64,000 nt of DNA from Chelatococcus caeni (lineage in GTDB: Bacteria > Pseudomonadota > Alphaproteobacteria > Rhizobiales > Beijerinckiaceae). Both the position numbers and the translations under genes were made by a program. Positions 37,309 through 42,152 of this stretch are shown here, piece after piece (positions within the stretch are counted from its first letter, which is position 1; each line of letters opens with the position of its first letter). The notes beneath the pieces were generated by a model. The model did not search any database. It was not told the origin of the DNA and saw only the letters and a list, made by a program, of their open reading frames with translations. Location: positions 868,001 through 932,000 of the forward strand of contig NZ_JACIEN010000001.1 in the NCBI RefSeq assembly GCF_014196925.1, written 5' to 3'.

Positions 37309-37767
37309 TCAGTTCTCCTCGGACGCCGTTTCGTCTTCGCGGCGGTCGCGGCGCGGGCCGCGGTCGCCGCGGTCACCACGATCGCCCCGGTCACCGCGCG
37401 GGCCGCGGTCGAAACCGCCGTCGCGGTCGCGGCGCTCGTCGCGGTCGCGCTTCTGCATCATCGCCGAGGGGCCTTCCTCGTGCGCCTCGACCCGAAGGGT
37501 GATGAAGCGCAGGATGTCCTCGTTGATGCGCATCTGGCGCTCCATCTCGGCCACGGCCGCTGCCGGGGCGTCGATGTTGACCAGCGTGAAATGCGCCTTG
37601 CGGTTCTTCTTGATGCGGTAGGCGAGCGACTTGATGCCCCAGTACTCGGTCTTGCCGACGGAGCCGCCGTTCGTCTCGACGATGCCCTTGAACTGTTCGA
37701 CGAGGGCCTCGACCTGCTGTGCGGAAATATCCTGGCGTGCCAGGAAGACGTGCTCGTAGAGAGCCAT
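37309..37767 (-). CDS. rpsF: 30S ribosomal protein S6
   Basis: 152 residues. The S6 fold is clear ([20 protein letters not shown], then [20 protein letters not shown]). The C-terminal ~45 residues are a highly charged Arg/Asp/Gly tail with repeated RGD-like units ([13 protein letters not shown]), typical of the order and likely disordered. First gene of the operon, behind a long leader. Confidence 0.97.
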
Positions 37768-38082
37768 TGAGTGGCCTTTCCTTTACAACCGACGTTCTCT
37801 CCGGCGCTGAGCCCTTCGAGCCCTGTCGCCAAGGCCCGAGCGCGCTGTTCGAAGGCGGAGACACGGGACGCCGGGGCGGATGCCCCTCACGGGCCTCACC
37901 TCGGGAGCAGATCCCGTCGGCAAGGCACCGCCGTCCGTTCAGCCCCCGGCCGGAGCGAACGTGAAGCGGGGCCTTTAAGGGATTTTGAGGGGGATGGCAA
38001 GGGGGCGCTAAAGGGCGCAAAGCCAATCGACGCGGCTTTATGCGTCATCTCGCTCAATGATCTGCTCTCTCGGTCGAGCCTG
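37768..38082. other. rpsF leader and edge of the inserted region
   Basis: 315 bases. Bases 37768 to about 37965 would be transcribed as a ~200-nt GC-rich rpsF leader from the promoter at 37972-38000. The remaining ~80 bases reach the deaminase stop and include a short AAAGCC/GGCTTT hairpin (38019-38039). No gene is supported. Confidence 0.7.
37972..38000 (-). promoter_or_regulatory. Candidate sigma-70 promoter of the rpsF operon
   Basis: On the minus strand TTGCCA (38000-37995) and TAAAGG (37977-37972) are spaced by exactly 17 bases. Transcription would start near 37965, leaving a ~200-nt leader ahead of rpsF. Prediction by eye only. Confidence 0.5.
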
Positions 38083-39699
38083 CTACAGCGATGTCGCTGA
38101 TTCCGGCGGTGGATTGGTGGTGGCGTTTAAAGATTCGTCGGTATTTGTCGAGGTATCGTCTCGCTTTATTTGCCCAAATAAAATGCTGACGGCGGCTGCC
38201 TCGATGTCAGGGTAATAAGATGGAACAACTATATCAAGCATCGGCCGTTCAATATTATCATCAGAATACCATCTTCTTGCTGTTCCGTTGCGATTCTTTC
38301 GTTTTCCTTTTTGAAAAATATCTCGGTACCTAAAGGGCGAAATTCCCATGAATGGGACGAAAGAAACTCTTTCGTGGCTCTCCTGTTCGATCTCGATCTC
38401 GTTGGCATGAAGTTCTTTTGCTCGGCTTTTTGGATAAGGTTCCATATAGACAACACGGTTTATGCCGCTTGCGATAATATGCTTGGTGCAGTTGTGGCAA
38501 GGAAAGGTTGTGCAATATAGTGTGCTACCTTTTATGCTTCTTCCTAGGCGTGCTGCGTCGCAGATGGCGCACATTTCAGCATGGACGACGCGCCCGTACT
38601 CGGTCAAATCCAGAATGGACGCGCCGAATAGCGCTCCTCTGCCGCGCTTAGCTTCTTCGCTTGTTATGGGTTTTTGTATAAGCTCTTCAACGATATGGGC
38701 GGGTGTTCCTATGCTCTTGGCTTTTCTTGACAAGAGTCCGTTGTCTAAAAAACGATTAACTAGATCGCGTAAAATTTCTTTTTTAACGAGTTCGTTTGGA
38801 TCGTATCCAATTCTTACATCTCTAAAATCCGGCTCTTCCATATCCCAGTAGGTGCCGCCTGAGAATTTTGGAACCTCATTGCATCCCTGTGTGATAAGTT
38901 CACCATCTGTTGTGAAGATGGCGGCGCCGACTTGTCTGGACAAATCAGATGATCGCAACGAAGCTGATTTCGCTGCATACATTCCGTACTCATCTTTAGA
39001 TGGAGAAATATCATTCCGCCCAAAGAAAGCATTTATAAAGCGCAAAATTGTGGAGTCCATTTCTCTCCGTTCTACTCCGGGAATGAATACGTCTGCCAAA
39101 TGAAATGCTTCTCGTAGTTGCTGGCCATATGGTTCGGCCTCGCTCGCATCACGCTCAATCAACAGTTTGGCGCGTTCTGAGATTTCTTGTGGAGGTATAA
39201 GGCTGCCGCGCAACTTTGCTTCAATGCGTTGTGTTCGATCGTTTATCGACCCGTAGGCGGAAATCAGTATAAACTGCCTACCATATACATTCCTCAAAAA
39301 AATAACTTCGTCCGGCCTTTTTAGTTGGCGGATAATGTAAGCTTTTCCTTCTGGAACAGATTCGTCGTCGATAGTATGCTTCTTTCTAATTGCGGTAATC
39401 TCGTTAATTGCCATGGCAGACATTGCTGCGGCATTATCGTACTTTCGGCATAGAGAATTTGCATAATCCATCTTAAAATTGGTGACCGAAAAAAAGTCGT
39501 CCGATGTGGGCTCTAGAACTTCGGTTGGGAAATACCGCATAAGCTCTGTTAATTTTATCACTTCGGAATCGTATTGAACGCCTTTCAATGCGTTCACTAA
39601 GCTAGTCGTAATTTCATCTATATCAACGCCAATTGGCCCGGCTATACCAAAAATTAACTCTGGTCGACGAACAGTCTGAATGGTAGCAGTTGGCATCAT
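38083..39699 (-). CDS. Anti-phage dCTP deaminase, AvcD/DCD type
   Basis: 538 residues from the ATG at 39699, behind AGGGGAGA; ATG at 39696 or 39723 are alternatives. The N-terminal half looks like the degenerate P-loop nucleotide-kinase-like domain of AvcD (ELIFGIAGPIGVDIDEI, no Walker Lys). The C-terminal half is a cytidine-deaminase fold: SRQVGAAIFTTDGELITQG, NEVPKFSGGTYW, VVHAEMCAICDA with the zinc His and catalytic Glu, and TTFPCHNCTKHI with the two zinc Cys. AvcD-type enzymes deaminate dCTP/dCMP on infection and starve phage of dCTP. Codons are far AT-richer than the neighbours: the line 39241-39300 is 24 of 60 G+C by count. This points to horizontal gain. An ordinary metabolic dCMP deaminase would be about 150-180 residues. 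Confidence 0.88.
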   Translation of the reverse strand: MMPTATIQTVRRPELIFGIAGPIGVDIDEITTSLVNALKGVQYDSEVIKLTELMRYFPTEVLEPTSDDFFSVTNFKMDYANSLCRKYDNAAAMSAMAINEITAIRKKHTIDDESVPEGKAYIIRQLKRPDEVIFLRNVYGRQFILISAYGSINDRTQRIEAKLRGSLIPPQEISERAKLLIERDASEAEPYGQQLREAFHLADVFIPGVERREMDSTILRFINAFFGRNDISPSKDEYGMYAAKSASLRSSDLSRQVGAAIFTTDGELITQGCNEVPKFSGGTYWDMEEPDFRDVRIGYDPNELVKKEILRDLVNRFLDNGLLSRKAKSIGTPAHIVEELIQKPITSEEAKRGRGALFGASILDLTEYGRVVHAEMCAICDAARLGRSIKGSTLYCTTFPCHNCTKHIIASGINRVVYMEPYPKSRAKELHANEIEIEQESHERVSFVPFMGISPFRYRDIFQKGKRKNRNGTARRWYSDDNIERPMLDIVVPSYYPDIEAAAVSILFGQIKRDDTSTNTDESLNATTNPPPESATSL

Positions 39700-39786
39700 C
39701 GTCTCCCCTGTGGATAAAGCCATCTACCGGTGGAATCGCGCACGCTGTATGATGTTGAAAAAACGATTCTTGGAAAAGGGTGCGCC

Positions 39787-39987
39787 ATGAGCAACAATCA
39801 GCAAGGGTGGGAATTGGATTTCCACGCTATCCAAGCAACGGTTGAACGGGTCGCGCGACGGGTCAATGCTCACTTTGTGATCGATCCGGATAAGGCCGAG
39901 GAATTTCGGGCAGCTATTTCCAAGCGCGAAGAGAACCTAAATCAGGTTTACGGGGTTCTGCATGAGAATGTTAAGGCGTCTCGATGA
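39787..39987 (+). CDS. Small ORF divergent from the deaminase, unknown
   Basis: 66 residues, mostly helical and charged, ending HENVKASR; the open frame starts earlier at 39730. AAAAGGG at 39775-39781 sits at good distance from the ATG at 39787. It shares the AT-rich composition of the deaminase and starts ~90 bases from it on the opposite strand. I do not recognise a family. It could be a regulator or partner of the deaminase, or a chance ORF covering an RNA gene like AvcI, the small RNA that restrains AvcD in Vibrio. Confidence 0.5.
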   Translation: MSNNQQGWELDFHAIQATVERVARRVNAHFVIDPDKAEEFRAAISKREENLNQVYGVLHENVKASR

Positions 39988-40072
39988 TCCCAGTCGCCTG
40001 AAATGGTAACATTACCAATTGCGGCTTTTGGGGCGCTTTGTGTCCCCTCAATAGGGGGCGGGTAAATTTGGG
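39988..40072. other. End of the AT-rich segment, with a hairpin
   Basis: Continues the AT-rich composition. Contains a TGGTA/TACCA repeat near 40002-40015 and a GTCCCCT/AGGGGGC hairpin with CAAT loop (40042-40059) that could end transcription of the 66-residue ORF. At 40073 the sequence switches to the phhA-like remnant. Confidence 0.5.
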
Positions 40073-40321
40073 CTATTTAAGTCTGGTCTTCCGCTCCCTA
40101 AACCCCCGCCAATAATCCCCCGTCCCCTGTCGCACCACCACATCCTCCGCCCCGATCTCGAACGGCGTCAGCTCCGGCTCCGTCCGCAGCCGGATGTACA
40201 ATTCCAAAAAATCCGTCTCCCGCATCAGCGCGAACAGGTCCTCGAACCGCTCGATGATGAAATGATCGCCAGCCGTCGTCGACGTAGTAGCCGGTGTACA
40301 GGATCCGGTTGACGTTCAGCG
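40073..40321 (-). pseudogene. Decayed 3' end of a second phenylalanine 4-hydroxylase gene
   Basis: The minus strand encodes ERFEDLFALMRETDFLELYI and PFEIGAEDVVVRQGTGDYW, nearly the same as the C-terminus of intact phhA at 41005, ending in an in-frame TAG (40073-40075). A frameshift near 40277 separates it from an upstream matching YYVDD stretch, beyond which similarity is lost at about 40320. The catalytic core is missing. Differences from phhA are spread throughout, so it is an old paralog remnant, not a recent copy. It borders the AT-rich deaminase segment. Confidence 0.85.
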
Positions 40322-40378
40322 ACGTCCGCGCGGGGCCGACGACCCCGATCTGCCCGCGGTCGTTCCCGCCTGCCCAGC

Positions 40379-40900
40379 CTATTTCCCCGGCGCAGCCGCC
40401 GCCGTCTCCCCTGGCGGCAAGATCCGGAACGTGAACGTCGTCACCTTTTCCCCTGGACCAAACGGCCCCGGAACCTCGTGGCTGACGGGCGGCAGGCTCT
40501 TGAGATAGGCCGCGATCGCCATGGCGTCGTCGGGCGTGAGATTGGCGAAGGCGTGCCAGGGCATGATCGGCGCGAGGATGCGGCCGTCCGGCCGCTCGCC
40601 GGTCTGGATCGCCGTCACGATCTGCTCCTTGGTCCAGCTGCCGATGCCGGTTTCGTTGTCGGGCGTGATGTTGCGGCCGACGAAGACGCCTTCGCCCGGA
40701 ATCTCGAAGCCGACGTCGGAGCCGCCGAGAAAGCGCGACATGTCGGGTGAACCGAAGAGATAGCCCGGCGTGTGGCAGTCATTGCAGCCGCCGATGGTGA
40801 CGAGATATTTGCCCCGCGCGACCTCAGCGTCCTCGGCGAGCGCCGGCAATGCCTGTGCGATGCCCGAGGCGGCCAGAAACACAAGAAGAATCCGTGACAT
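40379..40900 (-). CDS. Periplasmic c-type cytochrome
   Basis: 173 residues with a signal peptide (ILLVFLAASGIAQALPALA) and one heme c site, GGCNDCHTPGYLFG. The axial Met is probably in APIMPWHAFANLT. The overall form (MSRFLGGSDVGFEIPGEGVF, VGRNITPDNETGIGSWT) resembles single cytochrome domains of dehydrogenase cytochrome subunits. It probably carries electrons in the periplasm. The partner is unknown. ATG at 40900 preferred over an open frame extending 30 bases upstream. Confidence 0.9.
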   Translation of the reverse strand: MSRILLVFLAASGIAQALPALAEDAEVARGKYLVTIGGCNDCHTPGYLFGSPDMSRFLGGSDVGFEIPGEGVFVGRNITPDNETGIGSWTKEQIVTAIQTGERPDGRILAPIMPWHAFANLTPDDAMAIAAYLKSLPPVSHEVPGPFGPGEKVTTFTFRILPPGETAAAAPGK

Positions 40901-41004
40901 GACTCTTCTCCCTCCGCTTGCCCGCGTCATGGCTGGGAAGGATAAAATTTAACATAAACTGAAATCTTCTTCCATGCCGGTAGCCGCAACCGGCCGGGCG
41001 TGCG

Positions 41005-41880
41005 TTACTTGAGATGCGACTTCGCCTGCGGAAACTCGCGCCAGTATTCGCCGGTCCCCCGTCGCACCACCACATCCTCCGGCCCGATCTCGAACGGCGT
41101 CAGCTCCGGCTCCGTCCGCAGCCGCGTGTACAATTCCAGAAAATCCGTCTGGCGCATGAGGGCGAACAGGTCCTCGAAGCGGTCGATGACGAAGTAGGTG
41201 GCCTGGAAGTCGTCGATGTAATAGCCGGTGCGCAGCACGCGTTCGAGGTCGAAGGCGAGGAAGTTGGCGGAGGGGTCCTCGACCACGTATTTCGCCTCGC
41301 CGTAGGAGGAGGCGATGCCGGCGCCGTAGGCCTTGATGCCCTCGGGCTTGCGGATGAGGCCGAACTCGATGGTGTACCAGTTGAGCCGGGCGAGGAACTT
41401 CACGCCCTTGTTGTCGCAGGCGACGAGCCCCGTGCGGCCGTATTCGCGCATGTAGTCGGCATAGGCCGGGTTCGTCAGTAGCGGCACGTGGCCGAAGACG
41501 TCGTGGAAGATGTCGGGTTCTTCGAGATAGTCGAGCTGCGCCCGGCTGCGGATGAAGGTGCCGGCCGGGAAGCGCCGGTCGGACAGCATCTGGAAGAAGG
41601 GGCGCGAGGGGATGAGGCCGGGCACGGCCACCACCTCCCAGCCGGTGAGGCGCCTCAGGCGCTCGTTCATGGCGCGGAAGTCCGGCACGCCCTCGGGGCC
41701 GATGCCGAGGGCGGCGAGCCCGTCGAGATATTCCTGGCAGATATGGCCTTCCAGCGTCTTGCGCTGGCGCTCGAAGAGGATGCCCCAGGTCGCGTGGTCC
41801 TCGGCGCTGTAGCGCTCCCAGTCCTGCGCGATGATGCAGTCTTCGACGCTCTGCGCGTTCAACACGGCGTGCGTGGACAT
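41005..41880 (-). CDS. phhA: Phenylalanine 4-hydroxylase
   Basis: 291 residues, the size of bacterial monomeric enzymes. It converts phenylalanine to tyrosine with tetrahydropterin and O2. The iron ligands are the two His of DIFHDVFGHVPLL and the Glu of WYTIEFGL; SSYGEAKYVVEDP is also conserved. GGGAGG lies before the ATG at 41880; the open frame reaches 42027. A decayed relative of its 3' end lies at 40073-40321, with the cytochrome c gene in between. Confidence 0.96.
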   Translation of the reverse strand: MSTHAVLNAQSVEDCIIAQDWERYSAEDHATWGILFERQRKTLEGHICQEYLDGLAALGIGPEGVPDFRAMNERLRRLTGWEVVAVPGLIPSRPFFQMLSDRRFPAGTFIRSRAQLDYLEEPDIFHDVFGHVPLLTNPAYADYMREYGRTGLVACDNKGVKFLARLNWYTIEFGLIRKPEGIKAYGAGIASSYGEAKYVVEDPSANFLAFDLERVLRTGYYIDDFQATYFVIDRFEDLFALMRQTDFLELYTRLRTEPELTPFEIGPEDVVVRRGTGEYWREFPQAKSHLK

Positions 41881-42152
41881 CGCTTGCCTCCCTGACGTGC
41901 GGGAGCCGGCTACGGATGCGGCCTCGCGACAGGCTCCGCCGGCATAACGCACGAAGCGGCGTGGCAGGTCCGCCCGGCCCGCAGGACGTCCTTTTCGGAT
42001 CATCGCGCCTTGCCCCCTCGGCGGCAAGGCTGCCCCCCGCGCGGCGGGATGGCTGGACGGCGCGACTTCGGCTAAACCCGTGAGAACAGGGCGGGGGCCC
42101 TTGCCGCACGCGAGCGGCCGGCGCCCGACGCCCGCCTGGAGAGCACGTCACC

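What the first reader, a model, noticed from the sequence alone, without database searches (positions are those of the whole stretch)
38083..39987. AT-rich island with an AvcD/DCD-type anti-phage dCTP deaminase
Seen: a ~540-residue protein with a degenerate P-loop-like N-terminal domain and a cytidine-deaminase C-terminus (HAE plus PCHNC zinc site), in a segment much AT-richer than the genes on both sides (24 of 60 G+C in line 39241-39300). Known: this domain pair defines AvcD/DCD, which protects against phage by removing dCTP/dCMP. Inferred: a recently gained defence gene set between the rpsF promoter and the phhA region. It lacks other obvious defence or mobile genes, so it may be a minimal, single-gene insertion.
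Basis: partly seen in the sequence, partly recalled or inferred. Interest (0 to 1): 0.85.

Follow-up and report, generated by a model that had tools for sequence, protein, structure and literature searches.

The report
Phage-defence deaminase with small partner gene
An acquired bacterial gene that probably starves phages of a DNA building block sits beside a tiny, oppositely oriented gene that recurs next to its relatives, which suggests that this kind of defence has a small protein partner.

Summary
The 538-546 aa protein at 38083-39723(-) passes NCBI's equivalog model for anti-phage dCTP deaminase (458 bits, cut-off 400) and keeps HAE and PCHNC; its model has an adenylate-kinase-like and a dCMP-deaminase-like domain. 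It lies in an insert (about 38010-40087) of 43-48% G+C between G+C-rich flanks. One of 4 held genomes of the genus has it; two lack any insert there; the nearest relative carries a reverse transcriptase between the same junctions. So this is a cargo-swap site.

Divergent small ORFs are assigned there in 25 of 27 homologues at least 38% identical and in 3 of 27 more distant ones. Leave-one-out profiles recover 18 of 19 members of groups A and B at E at most 2e-5; mismatches follow codon position. The intergenic DNA is enriched in GANTC/TGATTC (CcrM/GcrA-type site), replicated in 12 held-out loci, though the window's own two GANTC sites lack the extended motif.

Best reading: a two-gene AvcD-type module whose small protein most likely restrains the deaminase. 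That role and methylation control are inferred, untested.

The parts
38083..39723 (-). AvcD/DCD-type anti-phage dCTP deaminase, 546 aa as listed; likelier start M9 at 39699 (538 aa)
   Evidence: NF041025 458.3 bits, cut-off 400; PADLOC dCTPase 523.5 bits; AlphaFold2 mean pLDDT 82.5; Foldseek matches to dCMP deaminases and to an adenylate-kinase-related protein
39787..39987 (+). Divergent small protein, 66 aa (frame open from 39730), group A of the small partner ORFs
   Evidence: Recovered by a profile of the other members: E 7.8e-11, 2.7e-11; two-helix hairpin model, pLDDT 80.9
39700..39786 (.). Shared intergenic region of 87 nt between the two start codons, with GAATC at 39733 and GATTC at 39765 (GANTC sites in opposite orientation)
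38010..40087 (.). AT-rich insert; ends approximate, read from where the alignment with the sister genome G003 breaks off (38015 and 40088)
40069..40315 (-). Second, partial copy of the 3' end of phhA at the right edge of the insert
   Evidence: Direct repeats 40069-40261 and 40275-40315 with 41001-41193 and 41209-41249; 77% identical to residues 277-340 of PhhA

Best explanation
This is a horizontally acquired two-gene anti-phage module. Gene 1 is an AvcD/DCD-type deaminase that, when released during infection, converts dCTP/dCMP to dUTP/dUMP and starves phage replication. Gene 2 is a small, probably helical protein encoded divergently from a short shared region that carries GANTC sites. Most likely the small protein keeps the deaminase inactive and is lost when a phage shuts off host transcription, doing by protein what the AvcI RNA does in Vibrio. 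Shown by computation: identity of the deaminase, the insertion and swap, the recurrence and coding signature of the small ORF, the GANTC/TGATTC enrichment. Inferred: activity of this copy, physical interaction, the inhibitor role, and CcrM/GcrA control.
For: Deaminase. Insertion and swap. Small gene: upstream divergent ORFs of different genera match each other. A ten-member profile with the tested member left out (for L049, L050, L051 all three left out) recovers 10 of 10 at E 5.6e-13 to 1.2e-5; the best non-member in the pool of 330 upstream ORFs reached 0.017. In 12 further loci a divergent small ORF is assigned in 10, partly by eye. Leave-one-out over 432 ORFs: group A 10 of 11 at E at most 2e-5, group B 8 of 8 at E at most 5.2e-8, group C 3 of 5 at E at most 0.017, group D 3 of 4 at E at most 0.0082. 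Mismatches at codon positions 1/2/3 sum to 136/98/208 over 7 pairs; pN/pS 0.40-0.57 in the four group A pairs above 33% identity. Assigned in 25 of 27 homologues of at least 38% identity and 3 of 27 below. Pararhizobium gei has an annotated hypothetical protein there. Inhibitor role by analogy with AvcI, which inhibits AvcD and is lost on transcription shut-off (PMC10511110, passages).
Against: No functional test. The small proteins diverge fast and fall into groups A-D whose common origin is only hinted at. L073 (E 0.034, no better than the best non-member at 0.029), L013 (22), L074 (0.73) and L009 (6.2) are not recovered. The window's own small ORF has no canonical ribosome site, and its two GANTC sites match neither TGATTC nor YGAKTCG. 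Searching with the window's small protein alone found only itself in 397 genomes. An activator, sensor or DNA-binding regulator would fit the genetics as well. An AvcI-like RNA is not excluded: structure scores were unremarkable on both strands, but so were those of the Vibrio and E. coli plasmid loci, so that test is weak.
Confidence: 0.5

Rival explanations
1. Ordinary AvcID: the deaminase is controlled by an AvcI-like non-coding RNA from the upstream region, and the divergent ORF is a side feature.
For: In Vibrio the inhibitor is an RNA of about 171 bases encoded next to avcD (PMC10511110; PMC12409362; PMC9455884; passages seen). The tested relatives work that way.
Against: The conservation is at protein level with codon-position bias and recurs at one place in many genera. 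No Rfam family and no unusual fold were found, but the fold test is insensitive.
Confidence: 0.25
2. The small protein is a transcriptional autoregulator of the shared divergent promoter, or a helper or sensor of the deaminase, not an inhibitor.
For: Divergent arrangement over a short shared region (87 nt here), with an enriched DNA motif.
Against: No DNA-binding family matches the window's or nine other small proteins; the window's model is a plain two-helix hairpin without significant PDB match.
Confidence: 0.2
3. A lone deaminase gene was inserted and the small ORF is a chance reading frame.
For: Small, fast-diverging ORF; no canonical ribosome site in the window.
Against: Profile recovery at E 2.7e-11 for the window's ORF, codon-position pattern, annotated equivalent in Pararhizobium gei.
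Confidence: 0.05

Closest known systems
AvcID of Vibrio (AvcD deaminase with RNA inhibitor AvcI); DCD / anti-phage dCTP deaminase (NF041025)
   Same: Two-domain deaminase over the equivalog cut-off; a neighbouring element at the 5' end of the deaminase gene.
   Different: The neighbouring element here is a divergent, apparently translated small ORF; an AvcI-like RNA was neither found nor excluded. GANTC sites lie in the shared region.
Type II toxin-antitoxin modules
   Same: A small protein gene next to an enzyme of a kind whose excess is harmful to the cell in Vibrio AvcD (PMC9455884, passage).
   Different: Divergent instead of one operon; neutralisation not tested.
GcrA/CcrM-dependent promoters of Caulobacter
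   Same: GANTC near the start codons; GcrA and a RAMA-domain protein of CcrM type are encoded in the genome.
   Different: The window's sites lack the extended YGAKTCG motif; no methylation or expression data. In Brevundimonas subvibrioides the extended motif was not detected either (PMC7987155, passage).
Chromosomal defence hotspots with exchangeable cargo
   Same: One site between conserved genes holds deaminase, reverse transcriptase or nothing in four congeners.
   Different: No tRNA in the window and no mobile gene seen inside the insert; only four genomes compared.

Membership tests
AvcD/DCD anti-phage dCTP deaminase | Whole-protein match to the curated model | tested here: met
   NF041025 458.3 bits, cut-off 400, residues 22-475; PADLOC dCTPase 523.5 bits
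AvcD/DCD anti-phage dCTP deaminase | Zinc-site residues H, E, C, C of the deaminase domain | tested here: met
   HAE and PCHNC; invariant in 21 aligned homologues
AvcD/DCD anti-phage dCTP deaminase | N-terminal P-loop kinase-like domain joined to a deaminase domain | tested here: met
   AlphaFold2 model; Foldseek 3lw7 (adenylate-kinase-related) E 1.7e-6 and 2w4l (human dCMP deaminase) E 2.4e-9
AvcD/DCD anti-phage dCTP deaminase | Deamination of dCTP/dCMP and protection against phage | not testable with these tools
   Needs experiment
AvcID type III toxin-antitoxin | Inhibitory non-coding RNA AvcI next to avcD | tested here: inconclusive
   No Rfam family over its gathering score in 37500-41000; no z-score below -2 in 15 loci on either strand, the Vibrio and E. 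coli plasmid loci included, so the test is insensitive
Type II toxin-antitoxin | Translated small protein that binds and neutralises the toxin | not testable with these tools
   Coding signature found; translation, binding and neutralisation need experiments
GcrA/CcrM-dependent promoter | GANTC in the promoter region | tested here: met
   GAATC at 39733 and GATTC at 39765
GcrA/CcrM-dependent promoter | Extended motif YGAKTCG of GcrA-activated promoters in Caulobacter (PMC7987155) | tested here: not met
   The window's sites read GGAATCGC and CGATTCT. In homologues it occurs in 7 of 16 first loci and 5 of 12 held-out loci
GcrA/CcrM-dependent promoter | Loss of activity without CcrM or GcrA | not testable with these tools
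   Needs reporter assays
DRT (defence-associated reverse transcriptase), for the cargo of G003 | Match to a DRT class model | tested here: inconclusive
   General RT 129.5 bits; RT_UG17 105 bits over residues 146-398 of 464; RVT_1 73 bits

The most novel reading that the evidence does not exclude
Alphaproteobacterial AvcD systems are a distinct two-protein branch: families of small divergent proteins take the place of the RNA inhibitor AvcI, and their supply depends on the host's own adenine-methylation mark (GANTC, CcrM/GcrA), so that a phage which stops host transcription or disturbs methylation releases the deaminase.
Probability: 0.22. Interest if true: 0.82.

Novelty: new variant of a known kind. 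Interest (0 to 1): 0.6.

Why it matters
How nucleotide-depleting defences are kept silent and switched on is described, in the papers seen here, for RNA-controlled AvcID. If a small protein regularly sits beside the alphaproteobacterial deaminases, detection models that look for the deaminase alone miss half of the system, and tests that clone only the deaminase could misjudge it. A methylation-sensitive promoter would tie an anti-phage system to the cell-cycle methylation circuit, which can be tested directly in Caulobacter.

Tried and rejected
Metabolic deaminase: rejected. Viral relatives: the IMG/VR pattern scan gave none. In GenBank phages 1095 records match, but only 2 cover at least 80% of the query; the other 18 of the 20 listed rows cover 19-26%, the deaminase domain. 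Integration at a tRNA: no tRNA in the window. The small protein alone, searched in 397 order genomes, found only the window's copy; the family shows only through position and profiles. One profile for all small ORFs failed: on the held-out set the group A profile found only L073, weakly (E 0.0081), so groups B-D were set up partly by eye and then tested by leave-one-out. RNA structure test uninformative. Sigma-70 promoter and terminator scans found no more than shuffles. Foldseek with the small protein: no match at E at most 0.001. -10-like boxes: 5 of 20 GATTC sites have a 5-of-6 match downstream; no control was run, so nothing is claimed. Ribosome-site counts likewise have no control.

Rows dropped: L012, L014 and L067 lack the 5' end and are not in the final table of 54. 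L001-L008 (except the unrelated L002) and L047 repeat loci counted under other ids. Homologues are partly related, so counts are not independent events: the window's intergenic DNA had no blastn match in the loci held, but L050 and L051, for example, share intergenic sequence.

Full report
Observation. ORF 38083-39723(-) is 546 aa; a better start is M9 at 39699, preceded by GGGGAG (sequence). It passes NCBIfam NF041025 'anti-phage dCTP deaminase' with 458.3 bits against a cut-off of 400, while ComEB reaches 54 of 219. PADLOC dCTPase gives 523.5 bits; Pfam sees only deaminase-type domains. HAE and PCHNC are present, and the H, E and both C are invariant in the 21 aligned sequences. AlphaFold2 (21 sequences, mean pLDDT 82.5, pTM 0.76) gives a model whose Foldseek matches include human, Streptococcus and T4 dCMP deaminases, the bifunctional chlorovirus dCMP/dCTP enzyme 7fh4, and the adenylate-kinase-related 3lw7.

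Insertion and swap site. G+C falls to 0.43-0.48 between flanks of 0.64-0.76 and 0.61-0.75. In the genus 1 of 4 held genomes has the gene. In G003 the flanks are 96.2% identical up to window position 38015 and 95.1% from 40088 on. Between them lies a different AT-rich gene, a 464-aa reverse transcriptase (RVT_1 73 bits; PADLOC RT 129.5 and UG17 105 bits), which the other three genomes lack. In G002 the rpsF side (to 38014) is followed after 116 bases by the pdxJ side (from 42049); in G001, more diverged, 133 bases separate the matches to 37967 and from 42169. G002 has no PhhA match, and the G001 match is only 51% identical, on another contig. The right edge of the insert is a second, partial copy of the 3' end of phhA, shared with G003. 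How the cargo comes in is unknown; recombination between conserved flanks is my inference.

A second gene. On the other strand, 87 nt from the deaminase start, begins a 66-codon ORF (39787-39987). An all-against-all comparison of ORFs upstream of deaminases showed relatives of it at the same place and orientation in Microvirga, Devosia, Sphingopyxis, Novosphingobium and others (names). A ten-member profile with the tested member left out (for L049, L050 and L051 all three left out) recovered 10 of 10 at E 5.6e-13 to 1.2e-5; the best of the other ORFs in the pool of 330 reached 0.017. Twelve further homologues were then fetched at order level. I assign a divergent small ORF at the same place in 10 of 12 (not in L080 and L083), most of them of other sequence groups than the first. 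The groups were set up partly by eye. Leave-one-out over 432 upstream ORFs gave: group A 10 of 11 at E at most 2e-5 (L073 0.034, no better than the best non-member); group B, with a motif around R-G-[PSA]-[FY], 8 of 8 at E at most 5.2e-8; group C 3 of 5 at E at most 0.017 (L013 22 and L074 0.73 not recovered); group D 3 of 4 at E at most 0.0082 (L009 6.2 not recovered). Of the 10 held-out assignments, 8 are thus supported by profile. The best outside match of group A is L045 of group B in 9 of 11 tests, that of group B is L053 of group A in 7 of 8, at E 0.029-0.23: a hint of common origin, no more.

It is probably translated. Over seven nucleotide-aligned pairs, mismatches at codon positions 1/2/3 sum to 136/98/208 (three of the seven alignments hold 10-12 nt out of frame, and pairs are not independent). 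pN/pS is 0.40-0.57 in the four group A pairs above 33% identity. GGAG, GAGG or AGGA lies within 25 nt of the start in 17 of the 18 further members and, by my reading, in 8 of the 10 first ones; the window's own and L040 are the two without. NCBI annotates a hypothetical protein at this place in Pararhizobium gei. The window's and nine other small proteins have no Pfam match over a cut-off. The window's small protein is modelled as a two-helix hairpin (pLDDT 80.9, pTM 0.50) without significant PDB match.

Distribution. Of 54 homologues with an intact 5' end, a small ORF of groups A-D is assigned in 25 of 27 at 38% identity or more and in 3 of 27 below. None is assigned in the Vibrio and E. coli plasmid homologues L071 and L072; L072 has instead a 61-aa ORF in the same direction as the deaminase.

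Promoter motif. The 87 nt hold GAATC at 39733 and GATTC at 39765. The motif was first noticed by eye. In the 16 first loci the 6-mer GAATCA/TGATTC then occurs in 11, expected 1.4, and no 6-mer of any kind exceeded 7 loci in 200 shuffles. In the 12 held-out loci GANTC occurs in 12 of 12 (shuffle mean 5.7) and TGATTC in 7 of 12 (mean 1.4); 0 of 1000 shuffles reach either. TGATTC is found in 18 of 28 loci with the small ORF and 5 of 26 without (Fisher p 0.0011); GANTC in 24 of 28 and 15 of 26 (p 0.033). As background, 21 intergenic promoter-type regions that I picked from one annotated Pararhizobium plasmid stretch hold TGATTC in 0 and GANTC in 2; this is one record, and its own deaminase locus (L069) lacks the site too. 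CcrM methylates GANTC and the methylated site recruits GcrA (PMC3667746, passages); YGAKTCG is the motif proposed for GcrA-activated promoters in Caulobacter, but it was not detected in Brevundimonas subvibrioides (PMC7987155, passages). G000 encodes GcrA (196 bits) and a RAMA-domain protein (59 bits), the RAMA-CcrM link being recalled. CcrM/GcrA control is an inference. Against it: the window's sites match neither TGATTC nor YGAKTCG, and L041, L049, L052 and L069 have no GANTC in the region (the deaminase starts of L049 and L052 are uncertain).

Mechanism. In Vibrio, AvcI RNA binds and inhibits AvcD, and phage-induced loss of transcription removes it (PMC10511110, passages; PMC12409362, passages; PMC9455884, passage). 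By analogy the divergent small protein is the most likely brake; an activator, a regulator or a hidden RNA remain possible. Fold scores of the region were unremarkable, but equally so in the Vibrio and E. coli plasmid loci, so the RNA is not excluded.

Novelty. The deaminase is a known kind. I saw no description of a divergent small protein partner or of GANTC control for it in the listings or in the passages read. That library holds only openly licensed papers, and two papers recalled as the founding ones are not in it, so this is weak evidence of absence.

Noticed in passing
L037:5054-6445 (-), genome G003: A lone 464-aa reverse transcriptase occupies the same insertion site in the nearest relative; nearest PADLOC class UG17, with a weak group II maturase-domain hit below its cut-off. 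It may be an undescribed single-gene defence RT.
   Followed up: partly
40069-42027: A partial second copy of the 3' end of phhA, a cytochrome c gene (40379-40930) and intact phhA form a block shared by G000 and G003; G002 gives no PhhA match and G001 only a 51% one on another contig.
   Followed up: partly
L072:2709-2894 (+), E. coli plasmid CP057903.1: A 61-aa ORF directly upstream of and in the same direction as the deaminase, annotated as hypothetical; it may overlap the AvcI region there.
   Followed up: no
hits H3-H28: Small plasmids of E. coli and Klebsiella pneumoniae (4.6-9.3 kb) carry an anti-phage dCTP deaminase about 33-35% identical to this one.
   Followed up: no
G259:C1, G129:C5, G027:C212 and L011: Some family homologues come as two pieces or with an internal stop, as if the deaminase is being lost in places; artefacts of the first look are not excluded.
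   Followed up: no
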